Source: Lathyrus oleraceus (Eukaryota; Streptophyta; Magnoliopsida; Fabales; Fabaceae). Taken from it: a stretch of DNA of 64,000 bases. The notes beneath the pieces were generated by a model. It was not told where the DNA came from and did no database searches. It was given only the letters and a program-made list of their open reading frames with translations. The position numbers were made by a program, and so were the translations under genes. The stretch lies in assembly GCF_024323335.1 (NCBI RefSeq), contig NC_066580.1, positions 83,933,391-83,997,390 of the forward strand. Direction: 5' to 3'. Below are positions 11,917 through 56,770 of this stretch, piece by piece. Numbering within the stretch: position 1 is the first letter of the stretch; each line of letters opens with the position of its first letter.

Positions 11917-11941
11917 GGTATGTTTTCGAGGACGAAAACTC

Positions 11942-34959: not shown

Positions 34960-35011
34960 ATTGAAGGTAGAGAAAAAAAAGAAAGGGGGGTTTGAATTGT
35001 TTTAGAGAGAA

Positions 35012-36607
35012 TGATAAGTCTCGTGACTGTATATAGAATATAGTTTATCGGGTACTTGACTGTAAGTGCACAGTCCAGTCGTTTTAGTTTTAAAAGATAT
35101 TGAACCCACAGGGGCTGATGGTCAAACTAATGTTACCGACGTTACTATGTTTAGCTAAGGGGATAATTTTTAGAAGTTTGGTTGAAGAAAATTAAATCTA
35201 AGGGAAGTTGAGTTTTAAGAAAATATTAATAGGAGGATATCAGTATGCAACACATTAATCGTAAGGTATTCGATATGTCCTCGGTGTAAAATTTAAGTAC
35301 CAAATATCTTTAGAAATAAAATACTTATTTAAAAGGCTTTATCTCACACTCTCGTGATTGTTGATCCGGACTATACCTTTAAGTCAGAATGTACACTCTC
35401 GCAGTCCCATTTGAAGTTAAAAATACTTTTTGAAAATAAATAAGTTCTAATTGCTTTTAAAGTGCTCTCGCTGATTTAAAATCAATGCCTAGTTTTTAAT
35501 ATCCAGTTCGACCCTCACGCTCTCCCGATTGTTGGTTCTCACCTTGGTTAATTTCCCACTCTCGTGGCAAAAATCGTATTAAACAGCTTCTCACTCTTGT
35601 GACAAAGTTAAATAAATTTAAATCAAAAACCATAGCCAAAAAGATTGTTTGAGGAAAGATGTTTTACACCGATTATTATTAAATCCCGTCTAATTAAATT
35701 GTTACATACCGATACCGGTAGTTTAGCCAAACATGTTAAACAACGCAAACACAGACGGACATAAACAGATCAACAATAAAACAGACATGATTACAATAAT
35801 AATAAATAAATAACAATTGAATAAAAACCTGGAAATTGGATTAATAGAATACGCTGAATCTTGAAGTACTTGAGCAGTCCTCCACAGGTCGGTAGGATTC
35901 TGCCTCTTGGAAATAATAGCTTAAACTAAATTAAATAAATCGTAGTAGTTCCCCAGTGTAGGAAACTACTACTTTGGCTAAATGAAAGGCGGAAAGGAAA
36001 AGGGGAAAATCAAAGTTCTAAATGGTAGAAGAAAATTAATGTTGATGAAGAGAAGTAAAATACAAAGTAGAATTACTATGAAAAAATGAAGAGAGAAAAA
36101 GGTCTTCAAGGATGGCTTCCAAAATAAAAATTAAGCTTCCCCGTAGGTTTCCAACTTCCATGTTTTTATATCCCTCATTAGGTCTTGGCGGTTGAGAGAA
36201 ACAAGGATGACTCGGTTGAGTGAGGAAATCATGGGCAAGTGGTTGAACCCCGAGAATTCAAGCCTGTTGTCTCACTTCTGTTTGACTGTTTCAAGGCGCT
36301 GATCATGGTTGCGTGACGTTCGTGATGGGCCTATGACGGTCGTCACAGGCTGGGCGTGCCGGTCGTTACATGCTTTGTGACGGTGTTCACATCCATAAAG
36401 TTTGTATTCTCTGCTGCTTTTTCTGCTGCTTTTTCTTTTGTTTCTTCTTCTTTTCCTTCCTTTTCTATACTTTGGTCATTTAAGCATGGGGTTGAAATAC
36501 CTGCAAAAATAACTCGAACACTTGCGGAATAATCGGAATATAAATGAAAGTGTAACAATTATTGAGTGTAAATCAAGGTAATTATACGATGTCTTTTCGC
36601 GTTATCA
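35012..36607 (-). repeat. Athila-like 3' LTR
   Basis: 1596 bp, plus-strand ends TGATAAGTC and GTTATCA. It aligns with 53366-54950 with many point differences (an older element). A probable TATA box (minus GATATAAAAAC) is at 36164-36172, matched at 54518-54526. A set of TGACG palindromes lies at 36313-36390. Confidence 0.92.
36313..36390 (-). repeat. TGACG-type palindromes in Athila-like LTR
   Basis: Degenerate copies of GTGACGGTCGTCAC start at 36313, 36333, 36356 and 36377, that is 20, 23 and 21 bp apart. The 5' LTR has the counterpart at 54667, 54687 and 54722. The best copies are near-perfect inverted repeats of TGACG. Confidence 0.75.
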
Positions 36608-36622
36608 AACTCCCCTAAACTT
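36608..36622 (-). promoter_or_regulatory. Athila-like polypurine tract
   Basis: The minus strand reads AGTTTAGGGGAGTT immediately before the 3' LTR. This fixes the element's orientation. Confidence 0.85.
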
Positions 36623-38135
36623 GAATCTTTGCTTGTCCTTAAGCAAATAGAATTTGAAAACACTAGTTAAACACGAATACATAACATATTTCCAATTCGT
36701 ACGTGGTTGCTAGGTACTTTGTTCAGGTGGCAGATACTCAAGTAAAACACTAAAGATACAGTGACGACACAAGCAATAAGCATTAACGTAGATCTCTCCT
36801 TTGTACAAGCTAGTTTGAATCATGTTATTATAGCTCAACCTAGTGTTTCTCGTTGCTATTTCACCCGGTTTCTTTCTAGCGCAATCACATTAAGCCCTTT
36901 GCCTTCACACGCACTTAGTGAAGCAGCCGGTTAGTGACTTTGATCCTTTTCTTAGCACGGGGTTTGGTACACTAGTGTGGTACCCCTTTATATATCCCAT
37001 TTGAAGGTTGTAGGGGATCGAACCGTAGTTCGCCCTACTTAGTCCATTACCAGGTACCTTTGAACCAACCAACCGGGTTTTTCCGTTCCTTCCTTTTGTA
37101 TATCTTGTAACCGTTTGTATGCTTCATTTATCAATTTCTCGATAGAAAAAGTATGAAGAATATTCTTAATTCGTAGGCATCAATCACTTATATTCATCAG
37201 CTTTTCACATGGTTTGTGCTTAAGAAGGTGTTGACTGTTAGTATAAACTACTAGTGGTTAATCTAGAACGGAGACTTAAGGTATCGGTATAATGGGTATT
37301 CAAACTGATCTCGCAAAAGTGAGATATCTAACTTGTCGGGACGGTATCAATCTTGTTAATTTTTCCCAGTTTCCTAACAGAACCTCTGTAAGACAACCTA
37401 TATACTCGTAGGGTATGCATTTAATCTTAAGAATAAAAAATTTGTTATGTTATGTCAAATTAGATATAAATGAATGAACGATGGTAACGATTAGATAGAG
37501 ACAAACAAAAAATTGTTATGGCTAAGAATAGAAACAAGTAAAGGAAAGATAAGGATTTCCTCCCACATTTAAGCAAAGCATTGTCCTCAATGCTACAATA
37601 AAAAGAAAAAGGGAAGAAACACGAAGATCACTACTCGTCGTCACGACGTTGGCCTCTGCGTGCTTTGGCTCTTGCTCGTGCATGCTCACTTCTTCCTCGC
37701 TGGGTAGGATCCAACCCCACATGCTTAGTGTACTCCTAGATGGCATCAATGCGATGTGTCAGGGCACTCATCTCTTCGGAAAGCTCAGTCATCCCCTGGT
37801 CATGCCAGTTTGCATAGTCGTGCTGATCCCTCTGTATATGCTAGATTGTTTGCATCATTTTTGTCTGGCGCTCCTCCATCCTCTAGTTGTGTCGCAACTT
37901 CTCAGCGTAGATGTCTTCCATGGTGGCGGGTCATCGTTCATTTCTTCGTTGGCCTCGGGAAGATGTCTCTGCAGTGTACTCAGGAGGTGGTTGTGGCATT
38001 CTCAGTCACGTTCCTCTTCGACCTCATCTGCTCCATTATTAGGATCTCCTTCATTTGCCTCAGGGGCGTTCAGATCAAAATCCAATTTGCCATATTCCGT
38101 GGATCTGTACGGTTCCTGTTGGGCATGATGATGCT
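36623..38135 (-). other. Athila-like 3' region
   Basis: No intact gene. From 38135 to about 37633 the minus strand keeps a decayed, acidic then arginine-rich tail of the ATHILA ORF (ends ARAKARRGQRRDDE). At 37557-37602 lies the motif ATTGAGGACAATGC followed by AAATGTGGGAGG, also found after the second ORF copy (39578-39626). The rest, 36623-37556, shows nothing recognisable. Confidence 0.65.
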
Positions 38136-38943
38136 TCAAACTATCTTGTTTCTAACCACAGGATGATACTTCCCGTTGTCTCTGGCCTTGATGAGGTGTG
38201 AAGAATGACAATAGTCGATGTCGAGGGACTCGGCTGGCAAGGCGGGTAAATCGGCGAGCCTATCCCCCAGATTCAGGCCTAGTGCTATGGAGGTGATAAT
38301 TCCTCCAAAATAGAATGCCTGGATGCCTCTCTTGCGTGCAGCCTGTATTTTGGCCAATAGGAATGGGGTGGCATTGAACGCAATCGGGGTGAACACACAG
38401 TGAAGAAAGAAGAGTTCCTTAGAGTTTACCTTGTGATTGTTGACTCTTCCGAAAACAGTGTGCCTTAGGACTCGGTGGAAATATCTTATAGCTGGGTTGT
38501 GGATGTAAGTTGCGTTGAGCGCATCCCAGCTTGTGACGTTCATGTTGGTAAGTCTATGCCACACTCCAAATGCTATTTCTGACCATCCGTCAGGGATACA
38601 GCAGTGAACTCCCTCTCCATGTCGAAAGCCAAGCATTTGCGCTATATGGGTTTGGTTCAGGGAATACTCGGTACCGAACATTCTGAATGTGGCAACTCCA
38701 ATGGTGAACTGAGTTGCGCCTGGAGGGGTAATGTAGGAGAAAGAACTCAGGAATTCTAAGGTCAGCACCTCATAAGTTGGTTGCGGTGTGGTGCAAAGCT
38801 CCGTCAAGCCGGAGTTGGTCAGCATCCATCCCACGCCATCTAAAAGTCCTAGCTCCGTCAGACATTCGTTATCAACATACCTCGTAGCTTGGACAGAACG
38901 TTGATAGAATTTGAGGTAGTTGTCTCTCTGTCGCTCGCCGACT
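38136..38943 (-). pseudogene. ATHILA ORF, copy a
   Basis: This resembles the plant-specific ATHILA ORF family (recalled as PF03078), a protein of unknown function carried by Athila-like elements; it is not a pol product. The frame is open from about 38943 (ERQRDNYLKFYQRSVQATRY) through YEVLTLEFLSSFSY, FGTEYSLNQTHIAQMLGF, IHNPAIRYFHRVLRHTVFGR and FGGIITSIALGLNLG to TGA at 38136-38138. An ATG at 38834 lies within the conserved part, and the upstream frame lacks an obvious ATG before its TGA. The C-terminal tail continues past the stop in decayed form. A diverged second copy lies at 40060-40747. Confidence 0.78.
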
Positions 38944-39201
38944 TCTCAATTTTTGAATACGATAGTTGAGAGGTCAGGAGCAGCTCTCTCTTAACGGGTT
39001 ATTAGTGTGGTTTATGAAAATATAGGTGTCAGTGGGAGAGATGGATTTCGTGAGTTATAAGGTACTCACACGTTTCTCGCTTAAAAGGATATAAATAAAT
39101 GGTTAATGGAGAAAAGAGTGGTGTGAGTGGGAAAGTAGGATGATTTGATGAGGAAGAAGAGAGGAAGTGCGCCTGTTTTTATAGGCGGGCCCTCTGAATC
39201 C

Positions 39202-39374
39202 GTGACGGTCGTCACATGGGGGTTACGGTCGTCACATATAACGGTTGTGTAACGATCGTCTGCAACGGTCATCTATGTGTACGGTCATCTGCATGATGTG
39301 TGATGGGCGTGGTGCATCCTTGACGGGCGTCACGCCTGTGTGACGGGCGTCACACTACATGTGACGGTCGTCAC
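39202..39374 (-). repeat. GTGACGGTCGTCAC palindrome array
   Basis: Strong copies start at 39202, 39222 (GTTACGGTCGTCAC), 39320 (TTGACGGGCGTCAC), 39340 (GTGACGGGCGTCAC) and 39361. Neighbours are 20, 20 and 21 bp apart. About five weaker copies fill 39238-39312 at irregular spacing. The motif contains two opposed TGACG half-sites, the core of as-1/TGA-type bZIP sites; binding is not shown. Confidence 0.85.
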
Positions 39375-39577
39375 ATGCAACGTTCACAAATTTTTAAAGT
39401 AAATGTAACAGCAAAATAATAAAATGACTGGAAAATTGAATTTATTGTAGAAGCGTAAATAAATAGCAATGTTATTTAAATTAAATTAAAATATTAAAGT
39501 TAAATGTAATATTAAAAGAAATAATAACAATAAAAGTGTTAAATAAGAGCAATAAATAAAAGCAATAAAAATGCTCC

Positions 39578-39626
39578 CTCCCCACACTAAAACATAGCAG
39601 TGTCCTCATTACTTTAATTTGAGTAG
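39578..39626 (-). repeat. Conserved motif after ATHILA ORF copy b
   Basis: The minus strand reads AATGAGGACACTGC, then GTTTTAGTGTGGGGAGG. The counterpart after copy a (37557-37602) reads ATTGAGGACAATGC, then TTAAATGTGGGAGG. Its presence after both ORFs shows the duplication covered ORF plus motif. I recall a similar GAGGACA...GGGGGAG block in Athila elements; a purine-tract role is possible. Confidence 0.7.
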
Positions 39627-40059
39627 GAGAGGTCAGCGGTCGATGAAATCAGCCACAGTTCTGTCCGAATGCAGCTATAGCCTGGTTCAAGTGATCAAAC
39701 TGTTCGACGGTGACATCCATTAGGCCTAAGACATCAAGGCGCATGCTCTTTATTTCTTCTTTCACATTGGTAATGTCAGTATGGAAATCATCCAGACGGG
39801 TAAGGAGTATGGCAAGACTTTCTGCATAGGTTGGAAGTTCCGGTTCATCTATGTTATAGTAGTTTGGAGGGGTTTCAGGGTCAGATTCATCAACAGGGAT
39901 AGGGTCATCTAAATACTCATATATAGGCGGTGTCTCAAGAGGTGAAGGTGGATCAATTGGGTGTTCATCTAAATCATAAATCCAGTTATTTCAGTTATGA
40001 ACACTTGTTCTCTCATGGTTAGGTAGGGTAAACAGCTGGACAACTTCGTTATTAATTAG

Positions 40060-40747
40060 TTAATCAAAAGTATTTGGCCCAAGGTTTCCTATGATTCTAC
40101 GGTCAAAGCAAAATTCAATGTCCATGGGTCGGATGTGTCCAAACGGTACATGCTCGTAAAGTGGGCGTCTAAGTCCAATTGCATTAGCTATCATGGTTAT
40201 TAGGCCACCTATTATGATTGGGGTGTGATTGTTCTTTGAAAGGTGAATGAATCTCTCCATCATAAATGTTACAACATTGACATGTCGACCTTGGTCAACA
40301 CAAAGTAAGATGAAAAGTTCATCTCGTGACACTATGGTGTTGTTCGCTTCCTTTCTAAACAGGGTGTGGGATAGTATTTTATGGAAGTAGCGGATAGCAG
40401 GGTTGTGTATCATTAGGGAGTGCATCTCGTTTGGGTTAGGGTGGTAGTCTCCAGTTAAACTACCCTAAAAATAATCTAGGTCGATGTCATCGATTAATTC
40501 CTCCTGGCGGGTAGTGAAAACAAATGGGCCACTAGGAAATCCTAGGAGGTCAATAAGGTCTCTACGGTTATAAGTGAAGTCCATTCTAAATAGCCTAAAG
40601 GAAATCAACCCTTTGTTGAGTCTGTAACCATGCTCGGGGTTGTAAACTAGGGAGCTAAGGAATTCGAGGGTGAGTTCACGGTAAGTGACAAACCTTCTCT
40701 TAATAGCAGCATTCTCCTATCCTAGCTGGTTAAACATAAACAAGATG
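40060..40747 (-). pseudogene. ATHILA ORF, copy b, broken
   Basis: In the same domain as copy a: RELTLEFLSS, FTYNRRDLIDLLGFPSGPF, a TAG near 40466, then IHNPAIRYFHKILSHTLFRK (shared with copy a), RDELFILLCV and IIIGGLITMIANAIGL, ending at TAA by 40060. Its start abuts the end of gag at 40747/40748. Copies a and b share the IHNPAIRYFH core but are much diverged elsewhere, so this is an old duplication or a composite of two elements. Confidence 0.75.
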
Positions 40748-41780
40748 CTATCTTGGGACTTCTGCTAATATCTGACATTCTGGTGCAGTGTGTCCAGGGG
40801 TTCCACATAACTCACAGTTTGGAGTCACGACAGCCACGGTGGTTGCGGGTGGTATGGTCAAGTGGTCTAGCTTTTCAACAAGGGCATCTACCTTAGCATG
40901 GACATGGTCAAGGCTACTGATTTTGTACATTCCACTTTTTGTTTGGGACTTTTCTACTGGAGTTCTTTCACCCCCCCCATTGGCAATGGTTTTGGGTCAT
41001 GTTTTCAATGAGTTGATAGGCTTCGTTGTACGGCTTGTCCATAAGTGCACCGCCTGCGGCAGCGTCTACTATCAGTCTTGTGTTATACAAAAGCCTATTG
41101 TAAAATGTGTGAATGATCACCCAGTCTTCGAGACCGTGATATGGACATGTCCTCATCATGTCTTTGTTTCTTTCCCATGCGTCGTAGAGAGATTCTACAT
41201 CTTTTTGTCGAAATCCGTTGATTTGAGCTCTCAGCATAGCAGTTTTGCTTGGCGGAAAATATTGGGATAAAAAAATGTTCTTCAGTTCTTCTCATGTTGT
41301 AACTGAGTTGGATGGCAAGGATTGCAACCAAGCCCAAGCTCTGTCTCTTAGTGAGAAAGGAAAGAGGCGTAGTCTTATCGCATATTGAGATACACCATTC
41401 GCCTTCACATTGTCTGCGTACTGCACAAACTTGGTCAAATGTTCATTAGGGTCGTTCGTAGGATTTCCAACAAATTGATGTTGTTGGATGGCTGATAATA
41501 CTGAGGGTTTCAACTCGAAATCGTTTCGATTGATAGCAGGCGCAACAATGTTGTTGTGAGGTTCTTGTTGGGACGGGGTAGCATAGAACTTATGAGGACG
41601 ATTCAGTGGTCCTACTACAGCCATGGTTGGTTTTTCAACCGGTTCAACAGTAGGAAAGAAGATATCGGGAATATTGTACCTTTGTGGGTACTCTAGTGTT
41701 CGGTGTCTTAAATATAAGAAACATTCTAATTCAGCGATTGGCGGTGCTAAGTTATCGCCTTGTGAGCGAGTACTTGGCAT
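40748..41780 (-). pseudogene. Athila-like gag, unit U0 (the copy joined to the rest of the element)
   Basis: ATG 41780 (MPSTRSQGDN...). Acidic/proline N-terminus, then the capsid core (SAIQQHQFVGNPTNDPNEHL; AIRLRLFPFSLRDRAWAWL), TGA at 41292-41294 where the family has tryptophan, then the continued core (ERNKDMMRTCPYHGLEDW; YNRLLYNTRLIVDAAAGGAL), a linker, and one CCHC-type knuckle (CELCGTPGHTAPEC). It ends at TAG 40748-40750. One extra C in a C-run near 40971-40978 also shifts the frame, so U0 is one base longer than the other units. The TGA is shared by all nine copies. Confidence 0.88.
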
Positions 41781-42205
41781 ACAATCGGGGGAAATAAGGG
41801 AAAGGAAATTAGTTTTTACCTTAGTTTATACTGCGCAACGAAAGAATCGCACTATTTGACTAAATCAGGTCCCCGACAACGACGCCAAAAACTTGATACG
41901 TCTCGTGACTATATATAGAATATCGTCTATCGGGTACTTGTCTGCAAGTACACAGTCCAATCGTTTTAGTTTTAAAAGATATCGAACCCACGAGGACCGA
42001 TGGTCAAACTAATGCTACCGACGTTACTATGTTTAGCTAAGGGGATAATTTTTAGAAGTTTGGTTGAAGAAAATTAAATCTAAGGGAAGTTGAGTTTTAA
42101 GAAAATATTAATAGGAGGGTATCAGTATGCAACACATTAATCATCAGGGATTCGATAAGTCATCGGTGTATAATTTAAGTACCAAATATCTTTAGAAATA
42201 AAATA

Positions 42206-43214
42206 TCTGACAAACTGGTGCAGTGTGTCCAGGGGTTCCACATAACTCACAGTTTGGAGTCACGACAGCCACGGTGGTTGCGGGTGGTATGTTAAAGTTG
42301 TCTAACTTTTGAACAAGGGCATCTACCTTAGCATGGACATGGTCAAGGCTACTGATTTTGTACATTCCACTTTTTGTTTGGGACTTTTCAACTGGAGTTC
42401 TTTCACCTCCCCATTGGCAATGGTTTTGGGCCATGTTTTCAATGAGTTGATAGGCTTCGTTGTATGGCTTGTCCATAAGTGCACCGCCTGCGGCAGCGTC
42501 TACTGTCAGTCTTGTGTTATACAAAAGCCTATTGTAAAATGTGTGAATGATCACCCAGTCTTCGAGACCGTGATATGGACATGTCCTCATCATGTCTTTG
42601 TTTCTTTCCCATGCGTCGTAGAGAGATTCTACATCTTTTTGTCGAAATCCGTTGATTTGAGCTCTCAGCATAGCAGTTTTGCTTGGCGGAAAATATTGGG
42701 ATAAGAAAATGTTCTTCAGTTCTTCTCATGTTGTAACTGAGTTGGATGGAAAGGATTTCAACCAAGCCCAAGCTCTGTCTCTTAGTGAGAAAGGAAAGAG
42801 GCGTAGTCTTATCACATCTTGAGATACACCATTCGCCTTCACATTGTCTGCGTACTGCACAAACTTAGTCAAATGTTCATTAGGGTCGTTCGTAGGATTT
42901 CCAACAAATTGATGTTGTTGGATGGCTGATAATAATGAGGGTTTCAGCTCGAAATCGTTTCGATTGATAGCAGGCGCAACAATGTTGTTGTGAGGTTCTT
43001 GTTGGGACGGGGTAGCATGGAACTTATGAGGACGACTCAGTGGTCCTACTGCAGCCATGGTTGGTATTTCAACTGGTTCAACAGTAGGAAAGAAGATATC
43101 GGGAATATTGTACCTTTGTTGGTACTCTAGTGTTCGGTGTCTTAAATATAAGAAACATTCTAATTCAGCGATTGGCAGTGCTAAGTTATCGCCTTGTGAG
43201 CGAGTACTTGGCAT
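42206..43214 (-). pseudogene. gag copy in array unit U1
   Basis: ATG 43214; shared TGA at 42726-42728. The 3' end is cut at the junction, so PVCQ runs into LTR sequence (IFYF, stop). Subtype A (primer site with GGTAAC; VEIPTM and LSRPHKFHA in gag). Confidence 0.85.
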
Positions 43215-43639
43215 ACAATCGGGGGAAATAAGGGAAAGGAAATTAGTTTTTACCTTAGTTTATACTGCGCAACGAAAGAATCGCACTATTTGACTAAATC
43301 AGGTCCCCGGTAACGACGCCAAAAACATGATACGTCTCGTGACTATATATAGAATATAGTCTATCGGGTACTTGACTGCAAGTGCACAGTCCAGTCATTT
43401 TAGTTTTAAAAGATATCGAACCCACAAGGACCGATGGTCAAACTAATGCTACCGACGTTACTATGTTTAGCTAAGGGGATAATTTTTAGAAGTTTGGTTG
43501 AAGAAAATTAAATCTAAGGGAAGTTGAGTTTTAAGAAAATATTAATAGGAGGGTATCAGTATGCAACACATTAATCATCAGGGATTCGATAAGTCATCGG
43601 TGTATAATTTAAGTACCAAATATCTTTAGAAATAAAATA

Positions 43640-44648
43640 TCTGACAAACTGGTGCAGTGTGTCCAGGGGTTCCACATAACTCACAGTTTGGAGTCACGAC
43701 AGCCACGGTGGTTGCGGGTGGTATGTTCAAGTTGTCTAACTTTTGAACAAGGGCATCTACCTTAGCATGGACATGGTCAAGGCTACTGATTTTGTACATT
43801 CCACTTTTTGTTTGGGACTTTTCTACTGGAGTTCTTTCACCTCCCCATTGGCAATGGTTTTGGGCCATGTTTTCAATGAGTTGATAGGCTTCGTTGTATG
43901 GCTTGTCCATAAGTGCACCGCCTGCGGCAGCGTCTACTGTCAGTCTTGTGTTATACAAAAGCCTATTGTAAAATGTGTGAATGATCACCCAGTCTTCGAG
44001 ACCGTGATATGGACATGTCCTCATCATGTCTTTGTTTCTTTCCCATGCGTCGTAGAGAGATTCTACATCTTTTTGTCGAAATCCGTTGATTTGAGCTCTC
44101 AGCATAGCAGTTTTGCTTGGCGGAAAATATTGGGATAAGAAAATGTTCTTCAGTTCTTCTCATGTTGTAACTGAGTTGGATGGAAAGGATTTCAACCAAG
44201 CCCAAGCTCTGTCTCTTAGTGAGAAAGGAAAGAGGCGTAGTCTTATCACATCTTGAGATACACCATTCGCCTTCACATTGTCTGCGTACTGCACAAACTT
44301 AGTCAAATGTTCATTAGGGTCGTTCGTAGGATTTCCAACAAATTGATGTTGTTGGATGGCTGATAATAATGAGGGTTTCAGCTCGAAATCGTTTCGATTG
44401 ATAGCAGGCGCAACAATGTTGTTGTGAGGTTCTTGTTGGGACGGGGTAGCATGGAACTTATGAGGACGACTCAGTGGTCCTACTGCAGCCATGGTTGGTA
44501 TTTCAACTGGTTCAACAGTAGGAAAGAAGATATCGGGAATATTGTACCTTTGTTGGTACTCTAGTGTTCGGTGTCTTAAATATAAGAAACATTCTAATTC
44601 AGCGATTGGCAGTGCTAAGTTATCGCCTTGTGAGCGAGTACTTGGCAT
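43640..44648 (-). pseudogene. gag copy in array unit U2
   Basis: ATG 44648; shared TGA at 44160-44162. Nearly the same as U1 (subtype A). Confidence 0.85.
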
Positions 44649-45073
44649 ACAATCGGGGGAAATAAGGGAAAGGAAATTAGTTTTTACCTTAGTTTATACT
44701 GCGCAACGAAAGAATCGCACTATTTGACTAAATCAGGTCCCCGGTAACGACGCCAAAAACATGATACGTCTCGTGACTATATATAGAATATAGTCTATAG
44801 GGTACTTGACTGCAAGTGCACAGTCCAGTCATTTTAGTTTTAAAAGATATCGAACCCACAAGGACCGATGGTCAAACTAATGCTACCGACGTTACTATGT
44901 TTAGCTAAGGGGATAATTTTTAGAAGTTTGGTTGAAGAAAATTAAATCTAAGGGAAGTTGAGTTTTAAGAAAATATTAATAAGAGGGTATCAGTATGCAA
45001 CACATTAATCATCAGGGATTCGATAAGTCATCGGTGTATAATTTAAGTACCAAATATCTTTAGAAATAAAATA

Positions 45074-46082
45074 TCTGACAAACTGGTGCAGTGTGTCCAG
45101 GGGTTCCACATAACTCACAGTTTGGAGTCACGACAGCCACGGTGGTTGCGGGTGGTATGCTCAAGTTGTCTAACTTTTGAACAAGGGCATCTACCTTAGC
45201 ATGGACATGGTCAAGGCTACTGATTTTGTACATTCCACTTTTTGTTTGGGACTTTTCTACTGGAGTTCTTTCACCTCCCCATTGGCAATGGTTTTGGGCC
45301 ATGTTTTCAATGAGTTGATAGGCTTCGTTGTATGGCTTGTCCATAAGTGCACCGCCTGCGGCAGCGTCTACTGTCAGTCTTGTGTTATACAAAAGCCTAT
45401 TGTAAAATGTGTGAATGATCACCCAGTCTTCGAGACCGTGATATGGACATGTCCTCATCATGTCTTTGTTTCTTTCCCATGCGTCGTAGAGAGATTCTAC
45501 ATCTTTTTGTCGAAATCCGTTGATTTGAGCTCTCAGCATAGCAGTTTTGCTTGGCGGAAAATATTGGGATAAGAAAATGTTCTTCAGTTCTTCTCATGTT
45601 GTAACTGAGTTGGATGGAAAGGATTTCAACCAAGCCCAAGCTCTGTCTCTTAGTGAGAAAGGAAAGAGGCGTAGTCTTATCACATCTTGAGATACACCAT
45701 TCGCCTTCACATTGTCTGCGTACTGCACAAACTTAGTCAAATGATCATTAGGGTCGTTCGTAGGATTTCCAACAAATTGATGTTGTTGGATGGCTGATAA
45801 TAATGAGGGTTTCAGCTCGAAATCGTTTCGATTGATAGCAGGCGCAACAATGTTGTTGTGAGGTTCTTGTTGGGACGGGGTAGCATGGAACTTATGAGGA
45901 CGACTCAGTGGTCCTACTGCAGCCATGGTTGGTATTTCAACTGGTTCAACAGTAGGAAAGAAGATATCGGGAATATTGTACCTTTGTTGGTACTCTAGTG
46001 TTCGGTGTCTTAAATATCAGAAACATTCTAATTCAGCGATTGGCAGTGCTAAGTTATCGCCTTGTGAGCGAGTACTTGGCAT
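45074..46082 (-). pseudogene. gag copy in array unit U3
   Basis: Subtype A. Besides the shared TGA (45594-45596) it has its own TGA in the N-terminal part (near 46018), from a single substitution. It shares LTR variants (CTATAGGG) with U2. Confidence 0.83.
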
Positions 46083-46507
46083 ACAATCGGGGGAAATAAG
46101 GGAAAGGAAATTAGTTTTTACCTTAGTTTATACTGCGCAACGAAAGAATCGCACTATTTGACTAAATCAGGTCCCCGGTAACGACGCCAAAAACATGATA
46201 CGTCTCGTGACTATATATAGAATATAGTCTATAGGGTACTTGACTGCAAGTGCACAGTCCAGTCATTTTAGTTTTAAAAGATATCGAACCCACAAGGACC
46301 GATGGTCAAACTAATGCTACCGACGTTACTATGTTTAGCTAAGGGGATAATTTTTAGAAGTTTGGTTGAAGAAAATTAAATCTAAGGGAAGTTGAGTTTT
46401 AAGAAAATATTAATAAGAGGGTATCAGTATGCAACACATTAATCATCAGGGATTCGATAAGTCATCGGTGTATAATTTAAGTACCAAATATCTTTAGAAA
46501 TAAAATA

Positions 46508-47516
46508 TCTGACAAACTGGTGCAGTGTGTCCAGGGGTTCCACATAACTCACAGTTTGGAGTCACGACAGCCACGGTGGTTGCGGGTGGTATGTTCAAGT
46601 TGTCTAACTTTTGAACAAGGGCATCTACCTTAGCATGGACATGGTCAAGGCTACTGATTTTGTACATTCCACTTTTTGTTTGGGACTTTTCTACTGGAGT
46701 TCTTTCACCTCCCCATTGGCAATGGTTTTGGGCCATGTTTTCAATGAGTTGATAGGCTTCGTTGTATGGCTTGTCCATAAGTGCACCGCCTGCGGCAGCG
46801 TCTACTGTCAGTCTTGTGTTATACAAAAGCCTATTGTAAAATGTGTGAATGATCACCCAGTCTTCGAGACCGTGATATGGACATGTCCTCATCATGTCTT
46901 TGTTTCTTTCCCATGCGTCGTAGAGAGATTCTACATCTTTTTGTCGAAATCCGTTGATTTGAGCTCTCAGCATAGCAGTTTTGCTTGGCGGAAAATATTG
47001 GGATAAGAAAATGTTCTTCAGTTCTTCTCATGTTGTAACTGAGTTGGATGGAAAGGATTTCAACCAAGCCCAAGCTCTGTCTCTTAGTGAGAAAGGAAAG
47101 AGGCGTAGTCTTATCACATCTTGAGATACACCATTCGCCTTCACATTGTTTGCGTACTGCACAAACTTAGTCAAATGTTCATTAGGGTCGTTCGTAGGAT
47201 TTCCAACAAATTGATGTTGTTGGATGGCTGATAATAATGAGGGTTTCAGCTCGAAATCGTTTCGATTGATAGCAGGCGCAACAATGTTGTTGTGAGGTTC
47301 TTGTTGGGACGGGGTAGCATGGAACTTATGAGGACGACTCAGTGGTCCTACTGCAGCCATGATTGGTATTTCAACTGGTTCAACAGTAGGAAAGAAGATA
47401 TCGGGAATATTGTACCTTTGTTGGTACTCTAATGTTCGGTGTCTTAAATATAAGAAACATTCTAATTCAGCGATTGGCAGTGCTAAGTTATCGCCTTGTT
47501 AGCGAGTACTTGGCAT
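46508..47516 (-). pseudogene. gag copy in array unit U4
   Basis: Subtype A. Shared TGA at 47028-47030 plus a private TAA near 47501, six codons from the start. Confidence 0.83.
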
Positions 47517-47941
47517 ACAATCGGGGGAAATAAGGGAAAGGAAATTAGTTTTTACCTTAGTTTATACTGCGCAACGAAAGAATCGCACTATTTGACTAAA
47601 TCAGGTCCCCGGTAACGACGCCAAAAACATGATACGTCTCGTGACTATATATAGAATATAGTCTATCGGGTACTTGACTGCAAGTGCACAGTCCAGTCAT
47701 TTTAGTTTTAAAAGATATCGAACCCACAAGGACCGATGGTCAAACTAATGCTACCGACGTTACTATGTTTAGCTAAGGGGATAATTTTTAGAAGTTTGGT
47801 TGAAGAAAATTAAATCTAAGGGAAGTTGAGTTTTAAGAAAATATTAATAAGAGGGTATCAGTATGCAACACATTAATCATCAGGGATTCGATAAGTCATC
47901 GGTGTATAATTTAAGTTCCAAATATCTTTAGAAATAAAATA

Positions 47942-48950
47942 TCTGACAAACTGGTGCAGTGTGTCCAGGGGTTCCACATAACTCACAGTTTGGAGTCACG
48001 ACAGCCACGGTGGTTGCGGGTGGTATGGTCAAGTTGTCTAACTTTTGAACAAGGGCATCTACCTTAGCATGGACATGGTCAAGGCTAACGATTTTGTACA
48101 TTCCACTTTTTGTTTGGGACTTTTCTACTGGAGTTCTTTCACCTCCCCATTGGCAATGGTTTTGGGCCATGTTTTCAATGAGTTGATAGGATTCGTTGTA
48201 TGGCTTGTCCATAAGTGCACCGCCTGCGGCAGCGTCTACTGTCAGTCTTGTGTTATACAAAAGCCTATTGTAAATTGTGTGAATGATCACCCAGTCTTCG
48301 AGACCGTGATATGGACATGTCCTCATCATGTCTTTGTTTCTTTCCCATGCGTCGTAGAGAGATTCTACATCTTTTTGTCGAAATCCGTTGATTTGAGCTC
48401 TCAGCATAGCAGTTTTGCTTGGCGGAAAATATTGGGATAAGAAAATGTTCTTCAGTTCTTCTCATGTTGTAACTGAGTTGGATGGAAAGGATTGCAACCA
48501 AGCCCAAGCTCTGTCTCTTAGTGAGAAAGGAAAGAGGCGTAGTCTTATCACATCTTGATATACATCATTCGCTTTCACATTGTCTGCGTACTGCACATAC
48601 TTGGTCAAATGTTCATTAGGGTCGTTCGTAGGATTTCCAACAAATTGATGTTGTTGGATGGCTGATAATAATGAGGGTTTCAGCTCGAAATCGTTTCGAT
48701 TGATAGCAGGCGCAACAATGCTGTTGTGAGGTTCTTGTTGGGACGGGGTAGCATAGAACTTATGAGGACGATTCAGTGGTCCTACTTCAGCCATGGTTGG
48801 TTTTTCAACCGGTTCAACAGTAGGAAAGAAGATATCGGGAATATTGTACCTTTGTTGGTACTCTAGTGTTCGGTGTCTTAAATATAAGAAACATTATAAT
48901 TCAGCGATTGGCGGTGCTAAGTTATCGCCTTGTGAGCGAGTACTTGGCAT
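47942..48950 (-). pseudogene. gag copy in array unit U5
   Basis: Subtype B (primer site with GGCAAC; VEKPTM and LNRPHKFYA). Shared TGA at 48462-48464 and a second stop, TAA near 48896, that is common to U5-U8. Confidence 0.83.
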
Positions 48951-49375
48951 ACAATCGTGGGAAATAAGGGAAAGGAAATTAGTTTTTACCTTAGTTTATA
49001 CTCCGCAACGAAAGAATCGCACCATTTGACTAAATCAGGTCCCCGGCAACGACGCCAAAAACTTGATACGTCTCGTGACTATATATAGAATATAGTCTAT
49101 CGGGTACTTGACTCCAAGTGCACAGTCCAGTCGTTTTAGTTTTAAAAGATATCGAACCCACGAGGACCGATGGTCAAACTAATGCTACCGACGTTACTAT
49201 GTTTAGCTAAGGGGATAATTTTTAGAAGTTTGGTTGAAGAAAATTAAATCTAAGGGAAGTTGAGTTTTAAGAAAATATTAATAGGAGGGTATCAGTATGC
49301 AACACATTAATCATCAGGGATTCGATAAGTCATCGGTGTATAATTTAAGTACCAAATATCTTTAGAAATAAAATA

Positions 49376-50384
49376 TCTGACAAACTGGTGCAGTGTGTCC
49401 AGGGGTTCCACATAACTCACAGTTTGGAGTCACGACAGCCACGGTGGTTGCGGGTGGTATGGTCAAGTTGTCTAACTTTTGAACAAGGGCATCTACCTTA
49501 GCATGGACATGGTCATGGCTACTAATTTTGTACATTCCACTTTTTGTTTGGGACTTTTCTACTGGAGTTCTTTCACCTCCCCATTGGCAATGGTTTTGGG
49601 CCATGTTTTCAATGAGTTGATAGGCTTCGTTGTATGGCTTGTCCATAAGTGCACCGCCTGCGGCAGCGTTTACTGTCAGTCTTGTGTTATACAAAAGCCT
49701 ATTGTAAATTGTGTGAATGATCACCCAGTCTTCGAGACCGTGATATGGACATGTCCTCATCATGTCTTTGTTTCTTTCCCATGCGTCGTAGAGAGATTCT
49801 ACATCTTTTTGTCGAAATCCGTTGATTTGAGCTCTCAGCATAGCAGTTTTGCTTGGCGGAAAATATTGGGATAAGAAAATGTTCTTCAGTTCTTCTCATG
49901 TTGTAACTGAGTTGGATGGAAAGGATTGCAACCAAGCCCAAGCTTTGTCTCTTAGTGAGAAAGGAAAGAGGCGTAGTCTTATCACATCTTGATATACACC
50001 ATTCGCTTTCACATTGTCTGCGTACTGCACAAACTTGGTCAAATGTTCATTAGGGTCGTTCGTAGGATTTCCAACAAATTGATGTTGTTGGATGGCTGAT
50101 AATAATGAGGGTTTCAGCTCGAAATCGTTTCGATTGATAGCAGGCGCAACAATGCTGTTGTGAGGTTCTTGTTGGGACGGGGTAGCATAGAACTTATGAG
50201 GACGATTCAGTGGTCCTACTGCAGCCATGGTTGGTTTTTCAACCGGTTCAACAGTAGGAAAGAAGATATCGGGAATATTGTACCTTTGTTGGTACTCTAG
50301 TGTTCGGTGTCTTAAATATAAGAAACATTATAATTCAGCGATTGGCGGTGCTAAGTTATCGCCTTGTGAGCGAGTACTTGGCAT
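49376..50384 (-). pseudogene. gag copy in array unit U6
   Basis: Subtype B, with the TAA common to U5-U8 (near 50330) and the shared TGA at 49896-49898. It carries the unit variant SSHDHVHA, shared with U7 and U8. Confidence 0.83.
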
Positions 50385-50809
50385 ACAATCGTGGGAAATA
50401 AGGGAAAGGAAATTAGTTTTTACCTTAGTTTATACTGCGCAACGAAAGAATCGCACTATTTGACTAAATCAGGTCCCCGGCAACGACGCCAAAAACTTGA
50501 TACGTCTCGTGACTATATATAGAATATAGTCTATCGGGTACTTGACTCCAAGTGCACAGTCCAGTCGTTTTAGTTTTAAAAGATATCGAACCCACGAGGA
50601 CCGATGGTCAAACTAATGCTACCGACGTTACTATGTTTAGCTAAGGGGATAATTTTTAGAAGTTTGGTTGAAGAAAATTAAATCTAAGGGAAGTTGAGTT
50701 TTAAGAAAATATTAATAGGAGGGTATCAGTATGCAACACATTAATCATCAGGGATTCGATAAGTCATCGGTGTATAATTTAAGTACCAAATATCTTTAGA
50801 AATAAAATA

Positions 50810-51818
50810 TCTGACAAACTGGTGCAGTGTGTCCAGGGGTTCCACATAACTCACAGTTTGGAGTCACGACAGCCACGGTGGTTGCGGGTGGTATGGTCAA
50901 GTTGTCTAACTTTTGAACAAGGGCATCTACCTTAGCATGGACATGGTCATGGCTACTAATTTTGTACATTCCACTTTTTGTTTGGGACTTTTCTACTGGA
51001 GTTCTTTCACCTCCCCATTGGCAATGGTTTTGGGCCATGTTTTCAATGAGTTGATAGGCTTCGTTGTATGGCTTGTCCATAAGTGCACCGCCTGCGGCAG
51101 CGTCTACTGTCAGTCTTGTGTTATACAAAAGCCTATTGTAAAATGTGTGAATGATCACCCAGTCTTCGAGACCGTGATATGGACATGTCCTCATCATGTC
51201 TTTGTTTCTTTCCCATGCGTTGTAGAGAGATTCTACATCTTTTTGTCGAAATCCATTGATTTGAGCTCTCAGCATAGCAGTTTTGCTTGGCGAAAATTAT
51301 TGGGATAAGAAAATGTTCTTCAGTTCTTCTCATGTTGTAACTGAGTTGGATGGCAAGGATTGCAACCAAGCCCAAGCTTTGTCTCTTAGTGAGAAAGGAA
51401 AGAGGCGTAGTCTTATCACATCTTGATATACACCATTCGCCTTCACATTGTCTGCGTACTGCACAAACTTGGTCAAATGTTCATTAGGGTCGTTCGTAGG
51501 ATTTCCAACAAATTGATGTTGTTGGATGGCTGATAATAATGAGGGTTTCATCTCGAAATCGTTTCGATTGATAGCAGGCGCAACAATGCTGTTGTGAGGT
51601 TCTTGTTGGGACGGGGTAGCATAGAACTTATGAGGACGATTCAGTGGTCCTACTGCAGCCATGGTTGGTTTTTCAACCGGTTCAACAGTAGGAAAGAAGA
51701 TATCGGGAATATTGTACCTTTGTTGGTACTCTAGTGTTCGGTGTCTTAAATATAAGAAACATTATAATTCAGCGATTGGCGGTGCTAAGTTATCGCCTTG
51801 TGAGCGAGTACTTGGCAT
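50810..51818 (-). pseudogene. gag copy in array unit U7
   Basis: Subtype B with both shared stops (TGA 51330-51332; TAA near 51764). Private variants (IPIIFAKQN, SSNQWIS, NDFEMKPS) are shared only with U8. Confidence 0.83.
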
Positions 51819-52243
51819 ACAATCGTGGGAAATAAGGGAAAGGAAATTAGTTTTTACCTTAGTTTATACTGCGCAACGAAAGAATCGCACTATTTGACTA
51901 AATCAGGTCCCCGGCAACGACGCCAAAAACTTGATACGTCTCGTGACTATATATAGAATATAGTCTATCGGGTACTTGACTCCAAGTGCACAGTCCAGTC
52001 GTTTTAGTTTTAAAAGATATCGAACCCACGAGGACCGATGGTCAAACTAATGCTACCGACGTTACTATGTTTAGCTAAGGGGATAATTTTTAGAAGTTTG
52101 GTTGAAGAAAATTAAATCTAAGGGAAGTTGAGTTTTAAGAAAATATTAATAGGAGGGTATCAGTATGCAACACATTAATCATCAGGGATTCGATAAGTCA
52201 TCGGTGTATAATTTAAGTACCAAATATCTTTAGAAATAAAATA

Positions 52244-53252
52244 TCTGACAAACTGGTGCAGTGTGTCCAGGGGTTCCACATAACTCACAGTTTGGAGTCA
52301 CGACAGCCACGGTGGTTGCGGGTGGTATGGTCAAGTTGTCTAACTTTTGAACAAGGGCATCTACCTTAGCATGGACATGGTCATGGCTACTAATTTTGTA
52401 CATTCCACTTTTTGTTTGGGACTTTTCTACTGGAGTTCTTTCACCTCCCCATTGGCAATGGTTTTGGGCCATGTTTTCAATGAGTTGATAGGCTTCGTTG
52501 TATGGCTTGTCCATAAGTGCACCGCCTGCGGCAGCGTCTACTGTCAGTCTTGTGTTATACAAAAGCCTATTGTAAAATGTGTGAATGATCACCCAGTCTT
52601 CGAGACCGTGATATGGACATGTCCTCATCATGTCTTTGTTTCTTTCCCATGCGTTGTAGAGAGATTCTACATCTTTTTGTCGAAATCCATTGATTTGAGC
52701 TCTCAGCATAGCAGTTTTGCTTGGCGAAAATTATTGGGATAAGAAAATGTTCTTCAGTTCTTCTCATGTTGTAACTGAGTTGGATGGCAAGGATTGCAAC
52801 CAAGCCCAAGCTTTGTCTCTTAGTGAGAAAGGAAAGAGGCGTAGTCTTATCACATCTTGATATACACCATTCGCCTTCACATTGTCTGCGTACTGCACAA
52901 ACTTGGTCAAATGTTCATTAGGGTCGTTCGTAGGATTTCCAACAAATTGATGTTGTTGGATGGCTGATAATAATGAGGGTTTCATCTCGAAATCGTTTCG
53001 ATTGATAGCAGGCGCAACAATGCTGTTGTGAGGTTCTTGTTGGGACGGGGTAGCATAGAACTTATGAGGACGATTCAGTGGTCCTACTGCAGCCATGGTT
53101 GGTTTTTCAACCGGTTCAACAGTAGGAAAGAAGATATCGGGAATATTGTACCTTTGTTGGTACTCTAGTGTTCGGTGTCTTAAATATAAGAAACATTATA
53201 ATTCAGCGATTGGCGGTGCTAAGTTATCGCCTTGTGAGCGAGTACTTGGCAT
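52244..53252 (-). pseudogene. gag copy in array unit U8
   Basis: Subtype B; identical to U7 in all the coding variants checked. It is the first gag after the full 5' LTR, so it would be read first in a transcript. Stops: TGA 52764-52766 and TAA near 53198. Confidence 0.85.
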
Positions 53253-53341
53253 ACAATCGTGGGAAATAAGGGAAAGGAAATTAGTTTTTACCTTAGTTTA
53301 TACTGCGCAACGAAAGAATCGCACTATTTGACTAAATCAGG

Positions 53342-53359
53342 TCCCCGGCAACGACGCCA
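53342..53359 (-). promoter_or_regulatory. Athila-like primer binding site (tRNA-Asp type)
   Basis: The minus strand reads TGGCGTCGTTGCCGGGGA, six bases inside the LTR end at 53366. tRNA-Asp priming is known for Athila-like elements. Eight further copies lie in the array (for example 41870-41887 in U0); U5-U8 keep this sequence, U1-U4 carry one change and U0 another. Confidence 0.85.
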
Positions 53360-55026
53360 AAAACTTGATACGTCTCGTGACTATATATAGAATATAGTCT
53401 ATCGGGTACTTGACTCCAAGTGCACAGTCCAGTCGTTTTAGTTTTAAAAGATATCGAACCCACAAGGACCGATGGTCAAACTAATGCTACCGATGTTACT
53501 ATGTTTAGCTAAGGGGATAATTTTTAGAAGTTTGGTTGAAGAAAATTAAATCTAAGGGAAGTTGAGTTTTAAGAAAATATTAATAGGAGGGTATTAGTAT
53601 GCAACACATTAATCATCAGGGATTCGATAAGTCATCGGTGTATAATTTAAGTACCAAATATCTTTAGAAAAAAAATACTTATTTAAAAGGCTTTATCTCA
53701 CACTCTCGTGATTGTTGATCCGGACTATACCTTTAAGTCAGAATGTACGCTCTCGCAGTCCCATTTGAAATTAAAAATACTTTTTGAAAATAAATAAGTT
53801 CTAATTGCTTTTAAAGTGCTCTCGCTGATTTAAAATCAATGCCTAGTTTTTAATATCCAGTTCGACCCTCACGCTCTCCCGATTGTTGGTTCTCACCTTG
53901 GTTAATTTCCCACTCTCGTGGCAAAAATCGTATTAAATAGCTTCTCACTTTTGTGACAAAGTTAAATAAATTTAAATTAAAAACCACATCCAAAAAGATT
54001 GTTTGAGGAAAGAAGTTTTACACCGATTATTATTAAATCCCGTCTAATTAAATTGTTACATACCGATACCGGTAGTTTAGCAAGACATGTTAAACAACGC
54101 AAACACAAATGAACATAAACAGATCAACAATAAAACAAACATGATTACAATAATAATAAAGCAATAACAATTGAATAAAAACCTGGAAATTGGATTAATA
54201 GAATACGTCGAATCTCGAAGTACTTGAGCAGTCCTCCACAGGTCGGTAGGATTCTGCCTCTTCGAAATAATAGCTTAAACTAAATTAAATAAATCGTAGT
54301 AGTTCCCCAGTGTAGGAAACTACTACTTTGGCTAAATGAAAGGCGGAAAGGAAAAGGGGAAAATCAAAGCTCTGAATGGTAGAAGAAAATTAATGTTGCT
54401 GAAGAGAAGTAAAATACAAAGTAGAATTACTATGAAAAAATGAAGAGAGAAAAAGGTCTTCAAGGCTGGCTTCCAAAAGAAAAACTAAGTGTCCCCGTAG
54501 GTTTCCAACTTCCGTCTTTTTATATCCCTCATTAGGTCTTGGCGGTTGAGAGAAACAAGGATGACTCGGTTGAGTGAGGAAATCATGGGCAAGTGGTTGA
54601 ACCCCGAGAATTTAGGCATGTTGGATAACTTTTGTTTGACTGTATCAAGGTGCTGATTGTGGCCGTGTGACGTTCGTGATGGGCCTATGACGATCGTCAC
54701 AGGCTGGTCGTTACATGCTTTGTGACGGTCGTCACATCCACAAAGTTTGTATTCTCTGCTGCTTTTTTTGCTGCTTTCTCTTCTGTTTCTTCTTCTTTTC
54801 CTTCCTTTTATATACTTTGGTCATTTAAGCATGGGGTTAAAATACCTTCAAAAATAAGTCGAACACTTGCAGAATAATCGAAATATAAATGAAAGTGTAA
54901 CGATTATTGAGTGTAAATCAAGGCAAATATACGATGTATTTTCGCGTTATTGTAACACCCCAAAATTTGCCCTCCTCATTCATGCATTCATTTAGCATTT
55001 CATCATGTCAATCAGAATTAGATCCA

Positions 55027-55208
55027 AAAAAAAAATAAAAATAAAAAATAAAAAACGAAAAAAAAAAGAAAAAAAAACGAAAAAGAAAAGAAAAAAAAAA
55101 CGAAAAAAAAAACGAAAAAATAAATAAATAAATAAATAAATAAATAAAATAAATAAATTTAATTAATTAATTAAATAAATAATTAAATAAATAAATAAAT
55201 AATAAAAA
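55027..55208 (+). repeat. A-rich low-complexity tract in the solo LTR
   Basis: About 180 bp of A-runs broken by CG, then AAATA repeats. It lies upstream of the TATA box and is the least complex stretch in the window. Confidence 0.9.
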
Positions 55209-55260
55209 AATCTTGGACTTGGACCTTTCTCAAAAGCCCACTAAGCTACCAATATTAGCC

Positions 55261-55268
55261 TATAAATA
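55261..55268 (+). promoter_or_regulatory. Probable TATA box of the Tat/Ogre-type LTR
   Basis: TATAAATA after ATATTAGCC, 310 bp into the LTR. A start about 30 bp downstream would fall near 55295. Confidence 0.6.
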
Positions 55269-56770
55269 CTAGAGTTTCATTGAAACAAAAGCCACACAAA
55301 AGAGGAGAAGAAGGAAGAGAAGCAAAATACTCTGAGGTTTCCTTGGAACAAAACCCTGAGGAAAAAGATAGTGAGAGAAGACCTAACGGAGTTCAGAGCA
55401 GCCTCCAAACCCCGAAGGGAACTCAGCTACACAGAATCGCCTCTGCCTCACATAAACCCTGAAGATTGTTTTGTAAACCTCACGGGTGCAACTCAATTTC
55501 AATCAAGCTCTCCAATCAGGTTTGCCTTTATTCCCATTACCTTTTGCTTTGAAGTTGAATACTCTGAATGTATGAGGTATGATGGATGAATTTCATTAGG
55601 TTTTTCGCCCATGGGTTTAATATGTATATGAATGTATAAACAATGCCTTGAATGTTTAACCGTTTAATTTTTGAGTGTATGCCACAGGGTTTGAGTTTTT
55701 CTGAAACCATACTGTTGATCATGAAAAAATGCTTATGGTGTTTCACTAACCCTTTTGTTGAATTTTTGTGAGGGCTCACATGACTTTTGCAGGGATAACT
55801 TGCATGGTTTCCCACTTTATTTGTGGGATAACCCCTGGAGGTTCATTCCGATTACCTGTACTGACTCACTTTTCTTTGATGGCATTAGCTTGGAAGGATC
55901 TCAGGGTTTCCCATTCCTCTAATTGCTGTTACTTCGGATCTTTATCCGCGTGGTACTTTTACATTTTCCCCGCATTTTACTGCTTTCCTAGCTGGAAGAC
56001 CTCGATAGGAGGCAACGTTTGAGCCCCTTGGTGGCATTTTACTTTGAGATACATGTTTTGTGTTTTGTATTCATATCCCTGCAGGTAGCGCGGTTCCTTC
56101 GTCAAGGACTGCCTTTTTGCCCTTGAGCATCCCAAACCCTAACCCTTTATTGATTTTTCTTCTCCATAACACACGTTTACTCCTTCTACTACAGGCGAGT
56201 AAGTCTCCAAAGGTCGAGCATCCGGTAGATTGCGTAGTAATGTCGTTCGTCCAAAACCCAATCCATAACCCCGTAGTTAGCCGAACTACGTTTTGCTCTG
56301 ATTCTCAGGCCAGATGAGATACGTAGGCATAAGACGCGATGTCTTAGCGAGCACACATCCCCCAACCCATAGGTCAGCCGAGCTACGAAGACTCTGATTC
56401 TCATATTCAGATGAGATATGTATGCAGTGGATGCGACATCCGCGCGAGTCATTTTCATTTAACCCTTTTTTTGGGTAAACAGCACAAGATAAACCCACAC
56501 CCTTTAGACGAAAACTACAAAAGTGGATCCCGTAGAGTACTACGGATGCGTAGGGGTGCTAATACCTTCCCTTCGCATAACCGACTCCCGAACCCAAGAT
56601 TTGGTTACGAGACCCCGTCTTGTCCTTTCCTTTTTTCAGGTTTACTTCGAGCGTTTCCTTTCCCTCCTTTGGGATGAATAACGCACGGTGGCGACTCTTC
56701 TGTCATTTTCTTTCGCCGGTTGTTTTTTTTTGCGCACTGTATTTTTCAGGTTGCGACAGTTATCAGAGAA

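What the first reader, a model, noticed from the sequence alone, without database searches (positions are those of the whole stretch)
40771..53677. A retrotransposon's own LTR end, primer site and gag amplified into a nine-copy, 1434-bp macrosatellite
Nine head-to-tail units of LTR end + PBS + gag lie inside a single Athila-like element, still bounded by its LTRs and a perfect TSD. U1-U8 are exactly 1434 bp with no indels over 11.5 kb, so the expansion is recent relative to the element, whose two LTRs are visibly diverged. This is a satellite caught at birth. Tandem repeats derived from retrotransposon parts are known in legumes, but a unit that spans the LTR/PBS/gag border is unusual.
Basis: seen in the sequence. 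Interest (0 to 1): 0.9.

Follow-up and report, generated by a model that had tools for sequence, protein, structure and literature searches.

The report
Tandem array inside one pea retrotransposon
Inside one old, broken retrotransposon in the pea genome, a 1.4-kb piece has been copied nine times head to tail, and the sequence still shows how a new tandem repeat began.

Summary
Confirmed. Nine head-to-tail copies (eight of 1434 bp, one of 1435) lie inside one Athila-type element on the minus strand, with both LTRs and a perfect 5-bp TSD (GAGAA). Each copy holds the last 312 bp of the LTR, the primer-site region, the leader and gag as far as its zinc knuckle. The genome is pea (3.8 Gb). The unit-to-unit junction occurs 8 times in it, all here. 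The 30 relatives fetched each show one unit. The nine copies form one clade, share a premature gag stop absent from those relatives, and are most alike next to each other. The LTRs differ by K=0.053, the copies by K=0.002-0.029. Best reading: a microhomology-joined (AATA) tandem duplication in an already inserted, decaying element, enlarged later by homologous exchange.

One repair event may have made both scars.

The kind is known: maize CRM1TR and CRM4TR also start in an LTR and cross into the element, and this pea family has another tandem array (3 x 5.5 kb). New here: the parent still frames the array, the unit reaches into gag, and the founding scars are readable. "Satellite" overstates nine copies at one locus.

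The parts
35007..35011 (.). Left target-site duplication GAGAA
   Evidence: matches 56766-56770
35012..36607 (-). 3' LTR of the element (TG...CA)
   Evidence: pairs with 53366-54950 at K2P 0.053
38139..38945 (-). Stop-free frame with ATHILA ORF-1 domain (PF03078), downstream copy
   Evidence: frame; on 38136-38834: PF03078 E=1.1e-13
40063..40756 (-). Second, diverged and broken ATHILA ORF-1 copy (PF03078), now fused to gag
   Evidence: on 40060-40425: E=5.1e-6; 35% aa identity to the other copy over 112 positions
40753..40756 (-). Deletion junction gag/ATHILA; about 4.8 kb (pol region) missing compared with relatives
   Evidence: junction 30-mer occurs once in the genome. Overlap CCAA if the parent had CCAA (4 of 29 relatives); with CCGA (25 of 29) the uninterrupted overlap is one base
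40767..42201 (-). Unit u1 (1435 bp), the most diverged copy; keeps the original gag continuation
42202..43635 (-). Unit u2 (1434 bp)
43636..45069 (-). Unit u3
45070..46503 (-). Unit u4
46504..47937 (-). Unit u5
47938..49371 (-). Unit u6
49372..50805 (-). Unit u7 (mosaic between u6 and u8/u9)
50806..52239 (-). Unit u8
52240..53673 (-). Unit u9, continuous with the 5' LTR
42202..42205 (.). First of eight founding junctions (LTR to gag, 4-bp microhomology AATA); repeats every 1434 bp to 52240-52243
   Evidence: 8 exact 30-mer hits in the genome, all here
53342..53359 (-). Primer-binding-site region next to the 5' LTR (tRNA-Asp type by recall, not tested); repeated in each unit
   Evidence: sequence; assignment recalled, search did not complete
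53366..54950 (-). 5' LTR; its last two bases lie at 56764-56765
54951..56758 (.). Apparent solo LTR of another element (TG...CA) inserted 2 bp inside the 5' LTR end (TSD GTTAT 54946-54950 and 56759-56763)
   Evidence: its family was not searched
56766..56770 (.). Right target-site duplication GAGAA

Best explanation
A single Athila-type element inserted in pea chromosome C2 and began to decay. After insertion, a break or stalled fork near the gag zinc knuckle was repaired through short microhomology. A gag end was joined through AATA to a point 312 bp before the LTR's end, giving one 1434-bp tandem duplication. About 15 bp away the gag was joined to the ATHILA ORF, deleting about 4.8 kb with pol, perhaps in the same event. 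Two long direct repeats then allowed unequal homologous exchange and gene conversion, which grew the array to nine and keep neighbours alike. It makes no working gag and needs no function: it is a by-product of repair plus recombination, and a possible seed for a satellite. Shown: one junction type, unique to this locus; one clade; a stop shared by all copies; neighbour similarity; mosaics; the AATA microhomology. Inferred: duplication after insertion, the link between the two scars, exchange as the growth mechanism.
For: Junction 30-mer (up to 3 mismatches) found 8 times in 3.8 Gb, all in this array and all exact; deletion-junction 30-mer found once. 30 of 30 fetched relatives (of 39 scored, of 4650 first-look candidates) show one unit beside an LTR in the 1.5-kb flanks held; 29 run on into the same further gag sequence and one (L003) into unrelated sequence. 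The nine units form one clade, support 1.000, stem 0.033. The gag stop is in 9 of 9 units and at that codon in 0 of 30 relatives. In the LTR part, 3 changes are shared by all units while the 3' LTR keeps the relatives' commonest state, as expected if they arose after insertion. LTR K 0.053 against 0.002-0.029 between units. Unit distance against order: Mantel r 0.57, 81 of 20000 permutations as high. Mosaicism: 27 of 378 site pairs incompatible, at least 4 exchanges. Overlap of 4 or more at random breakpoints 2.0%. A 2-base change 8-9 bp from AATA is in all 8 junction copies, not in u1, and not the commonest state in relatives (29 of 30 as u1).
Against: Gene conversion could make an older array look young and could spread changes to all copies; only 3 LTR-segment changes speak directly for duplication after insertion. 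A C>T/G>A excess on the units' stem (30 of 50 on a loose count) is weak under a filter like that used for relatives (7 of 14, against 152 of 436), so it is not used. The single-event link rests on closeness of two scars noticed after the fact, and the second scar's 4-bp overlap holds only if the parent had the minority state (4 of 29 relatives). No reads were available.
Confidence: 0.8

Rival explanations
1. The array (or its first duplication) was made during reverse transcription by abnormal strand transfer, and the element inserted with it.
For: Proposed for Tat/Ogre 3'UTR repeats (discussion of PMC7004042, citing Macas 2009). The unit starts inside the LTR and includes the primer region, where strand transfers happen.
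Against: Junction unique in the genome, so no sibling element carries it; unit divergence is about half the LTR divergence or less; 3 LTR changes shared by all units are absent from the 3' LTR. The breakpoints lie in mid-LTR and mid-gag, not at the LTR ends. Conversion among units could explain the last two of these numbers.
Confidence: 0.1
2. Rolling-circle copying of an excised 1434-bp circle, put back by homologous recombination.
For: Would give exact-length units and one junction; named as not excluded for CRM repeats in PMC3648361.
Against: A burst predicts a star of equally distant units; instead there is graded neighbour similarity in two blocks and a deep u1. Later exchange could blur this.
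Confidence: 0.07
3. Assembly artefact.
For: Repeats of 1.4 kb can be mis-assembled; no reads were available here.
Against: All 36 unit pairs differ (minimum 3 differences), with ordered similarity; an artefact would more likely repeat copies exactly. The copy number could still be off.
Confidence: 0.03

Closest known systems
CRM1TR and CRM4TR of maize (PMC3648361; passages seen)
   Same: Monomer derived wholly from one LTR retrotransposon, starting inside the LTR and crossing its 3' border; CRM4TR monomer 1369-1391 nt at a single genomic locus; local homogenisation; illegitimate recombination proposed as the start.
   Different: Maize arrays are larger (187 and 39 full-length monomers extracted), lie in centromere or pericentromere, and stop in the UTR; the passages I saw mention no framing parent element. 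The pea unit runs on through gag, the parent with LTRs and TSD still frames it, and the founding junction and its microhomology are readable.
Ogre-derived satellites of Lathyrus sativus (PMC7004042; abstract and sections 7 and 10 read)
   Same: Fabeae; array inside an LTR element; a short array as a possible satellite precursor; some in pol-less elements.
   Different: There the short repeats lie in the 3' UTR of many Ogre copies dispersed in the genome. Here the repeat lies at the 5' end of one Athila-type copy and its junction is unique.
Cassandra TRIM tandem arrays (PMC7215508; abstract and outline seen)
   Same: LTR plus internal sequence repeated in tandem.
   Different: There the unit is a whole LTR plus the internal domain. 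Here the unit is a part, with new breakpoints in mid-LTR and mid-gag.
Tandem triplication on pea C7 (L070, L071)
   Same: Same family, LTR and gag within the unit.
   Different: 3 copies of about 5.5 kb, about 99.87% alike; the unit also takes in 1.27 kb beyond the LTR, so it is not confined to the element.

Membership tests
Athila lineage (Ty3/gypsy, OTA) | ATHILA ORF-1 (PF03078), a lineage-specific extra ORF found in 16% of Athila elements (passage of PMC6317226) | tested here: met
   Two copies, E=1.1e-13 and 5.1e-6, both above the curated cut-off
Athila lineage (Ty3/gypsy, OTA) | Reverse transcriptase phylogeny and absence of aRH | not tested
   pol is deleted here; pol of relatives was not examined
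Athila lineage (Ty3/gypsy, OTA) | Retrotransposon gag with zinc knuckle | tested here: met
   C-terminal piece: PF03732 E=5.8e-4 but 20.5 bits, below the 24.1 cut-off; N-terminal piece: no family. 111 of 144 protein candidates at E <= 0.001, among them one named retrotransposon gag protein (Asparagus) and Vicia villosa at 73%
Athila lineage (Ty3/gypsy, OTA) | tRNA-Asp type PBS | not tested
   Assignment recalled; the genome search did not complete
CRM1TR/CRM4TR-like retrotransposon-derived tandem repeats | Monomer from one element, spanning LTR and downstream sequence, one junction type | tested here: met
CRM1TR/CRM4TR-like retrotransposon-derived tandem repeats | Dozens of monomers or more | tested here: not met
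   9 copies; junction nowhere else
CRM1TR/CRM4TR-like retrotransposon-derived tandem repeats | Centromeric or pericentromeric place | not tested
   Window is C2:83.93-84.00 Mb of 493 Mb; no centromere map used
Satellite DNA | Long arrays, usually at several loci | tested here: not met
   12.9 kb, one locus
Ogre 3'UTR-derived satellites | Derived from the Ogre 3' UTR | tested here: not met
   Unit is LTR end, leader and gag of an element with ATHILA ORFs

The most novel reading that the evidence does not exclude
One break, two scars: a single repair event in the gag of an inserted element made both the founding duplication and the pol deletion. A trimmed gag end primed through AATA on its own molecule's LTR, copied 1434 bp and ran off at the broken end about 15 bp further on, and that end was then joined to the far side, losing 4.8 kb. 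On this reading a satellite can be founded by self-templated end repair, leaving the founding scar at the array's edge. The same signature (array edge a few bases from a deletion junction) could be searched for at the edges of other tandem repeats.
Probability: 0.3. Interest if true: 0.65.

Novelty: new variant of a known kind. Interest (0 to 1): 0.5.

Why it matters
How the first tandem copy of a satellite arises is hard to see once an array has grown and lost its parent and edges. Here parent, insertion site, founding junction, microhomology, an adjacent deletion and the growth history can all be read at one locus in a crop genome, so stepwise growth, age and the role of repair can be tested directly in other pea accessions.

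Tried and rejected
Rejected: separate insertions (one TSD, 8 identical junctions). Rejected: the array as a family-wide feature (30 of 30 fetched relatives show one unit in the flanks held). Rejected: selection for an open frame because 1434 is a multiple of three. All nine gags carry stops, and relatives over the same stretch show 0-3 indel events each, so equal length needs no selection. Rejected as evidence: a 5mC-decay signature on the stem (7 of 14 under a filter like that of the relatives' 152 of 436). Rejected: the C1 pair (8.6 kb apart) as a proven tandem duplication, since 500-bp pieces are only 96.4% alike. Not obtained: the tRNA-Asp check of the PBS and a full list of PBS places (182 hits and 169, each listing cut at about 100). 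A literature search combining satellite DNA, rolling circle, unequal crossing over, microhomology, tandem duplication and retrotransposon found 0 papers. Seven other searches and the CRM1TR search showed no title or abstract start about this array; that is a statement about those listings only.

Full report
Place. The window lies at G000:C2:83933391-83997390 in a genome of 3.795 Gb. The lengths of its large contigs (for example C6 523395090, C5 652929960) equal those given for Lathyrus oleraceus (pea) proteins, so the plant is pea.

The array. Self-comparison gives nine direct copies, 1434 bp apart. Seen on the minus strand, which is the element's sense, each unit is the last 312 bp of the LTR, the primer-site region, a leader, and gag as far as just past the zinc knuckle (sequence; translations). 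Eight copies are exactly 1434 bp and u1, at the far end from the 5' LTR, has one extra homopolymer base. Differences: 3-9 within u2-u5, 4-23 within u6-u9, 25-34 between these blocks, 34-41 from u1 to all others; 71 variable columns.

The parent. The 3' LTR is 35012-36607 and the 5' LTR 53366-54950 with its last two bases at 56764-56765, because an apparent solo LTR (54951-56758, TSD GTTAT) landed 2 bp from the end. Read past it, the element has a perfect 5-bp TSD, GAGAA. LTR K2P is 0.053 (50 transitions, 31 transversions, 1584 sites). Between array and 3' LTR are two diverged ATHILA ORF-1 copies (PF03078), and the stop-free frames printed there show no pol (by eye).

Relatives. A genome search with the unit scored 39 places of 4650 first-look candidates, 92-94% identical; the window's own copies are not among the 39. 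In the 30 fetched, one unit stands beside an LTR that continues past the unit, within 1.5-kb flanks, and no match to the window's 36608-40767 stretch is seen there. Gag runs on into the same further sequence in 29; in L003 unrelated sequence starts at that point. The unit junction, with up to 3 mismatches in 30, occurs 8 times in the genome, all exact and all in this window.

A second scar. In u1 gag homology continues 15 bp past the array breakpoint and then switches to the ATHILA ORF. The ATHILA side (40 places scored of 1940 candidates, one of them the window itself; 29 relatives fetched) matches down to 40756. At the overlap the window reads CCAA; 4 of 29 relatives have CCAA and 25 of 29 CCGA. 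So the overlap is 4 bp if the parent had the minority state and one uninterrupted base otherwise. In five relatives whose two matches lie close (coordinates, my subtraction) 4.5-4.8 kb separates gag and ATHILA, against 11 bp here; five other same-chromosome pairs lie 21-53 kb apart, perhaps through later insertions. The fused 30-mer occurs once in the genome. So both rearrangements are private to this element and lie about 15 bp apart. If independent, a deletion end within 15 bp of the array edge has a chance of roughly 0.6% in an interior of about 10 kb (my estimate, made after seeing the closeness). The array junction has 4-bp microhomology (AATA); the chance of 4 or more at random breakpoints here is 2.0%.

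Order of events. A tree of nine units and 30 relatives puts all units in one clade (support 1.000, stem 0.033). All nine carry the same premature gag stop, which none of the 30 relatives has at that codon; further stops mark u6-u9 and u8-u9. In the 312-bp LTR part, 13 changes are on the 3' LTR alone, 3 are shared by all units while the 3' LTR keeps the relatives' commonest state, 13 columns vary among units and 10 are derived in both. The three shared ones date from after insertion and before, or by conversion during, the array's life. Divergence from u1 to the rest is K 0.023-0.029, about half of the LTR value; u2-u5 differ by K 0.002-0.006. With a rate of 1.3e-8 per site and year (recalled, for rice) that is about 2 million years for the insertion, about 1 million for the first duplication and 0.08-0.24 million for the u2-u5 copies. 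Gene conversion makes the last two lower limits.

Growth. Similarity falls with distance along the array (Mantel r 0.57, 81 of 20000 permutations as high; without u1 r 0.64, 198 of 20000). u7 is a mosaic of u6-like and u8/u9-like sites, and 27 of 378 pairs of informative sites are incompatible with one tree, needing at least 4 exchanges. This fits unequal exchange and conversion between neighbours. A two-base change 8-9 bp from the AATA is in all eight junction copies, not in u1, and 29 of 30 relatives have u1's state, as expected if it arose when the junction formed.

Is it unique in kind? The LTR-end/PBS pattern has 182 hits with up to 3 mismatches (nine are the window's, listing cut at about 100) and 169 for the commoner variant with up to 1 (listing cut). 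Besides the window, one further regular series is listed: C7, 3 copies 5494-5495 bp apart, about 99.87% alike, each with 1.27 kb beyond the LTR, the LTR, gag and 1.5 kb more (the third copy ends 25 bp early). A pair on C2 6303 bp apart matches over 500 bp without mismatch but with 2 gap positions. So tandem duplication across the LTR-gag border recurs in this family; among the listed places the many-copy array inside an otherwise framed element is only here.

Known kinds. CRM1TR and CRM4TR of maize are tandem repeats of LTR-UTR units; CRM4TR has monomers of 1369-1391 nt at one locus, and the authors propose illegitimate recombination followed by gene conversion (PMC3648361, passages). In Lathyrus sativus nine satellites grew from short repeats in the Ogre 3' UTR (PMC7004042, sections 7 and 10). 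The pea array looks like the same kind of process at an earlier stage, in another lineage and from another part of the element. It is therefore a new variant of a known kind.

Limits. No reads, no second accession, no centromere map; RT-based lineage and the tRNA type of the PBS were not tested; flanks of relatives were 1.5 kb; the single-event link was noticed after the fact.

Noticed in passing
window 5443-13936: Another LTR element with identical LTRs (1986 bp of identity between 5440-7425 and 11956-13941), apparent TSD TTAGT and a 1254-codon stop-free frame: a very recent insertion.
   Followed up: partly
G000 C7:298769406-298785863 (L070, L071): Three tandem copies of about 5.5 kb holding LTR and gag of the same family, 5-8 mismatches per pair.
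   Followed up: partly
G000 C2:297333378 and 297339681 (L074, L075); C1:188651150 and 188659780 (L072, L073): Same-strand PBS pairs 6.3 and 8.6 kb apart; 500-bp pieces 99.6% and 96.4% alike. The first looks like a recent duplication.
   Followed up: partly
G000 C2:42177763, 42202062, 42206554: Three same-strand PBS hits within 29 kb, two of them sharing a variant: perhaps another local duplication.
   Followed up: no
L003: In this relative unrelated sequence begins in gag at the same short motif where the window's element has its deletion junction: chance, or a fragile or preferred site.
   Followed up: no
window 38139-38945 and 40063-40756: Two diverged ATHILA ORF-1 copies in one element, 35% identical in protein over 112 positions.
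   Followed up: partly
window 28204-29089 and 33807-34691: Direct repeats 91.9% alike, perhaps the LTRs of another, older element directly left of the array element.
   Followed up: no
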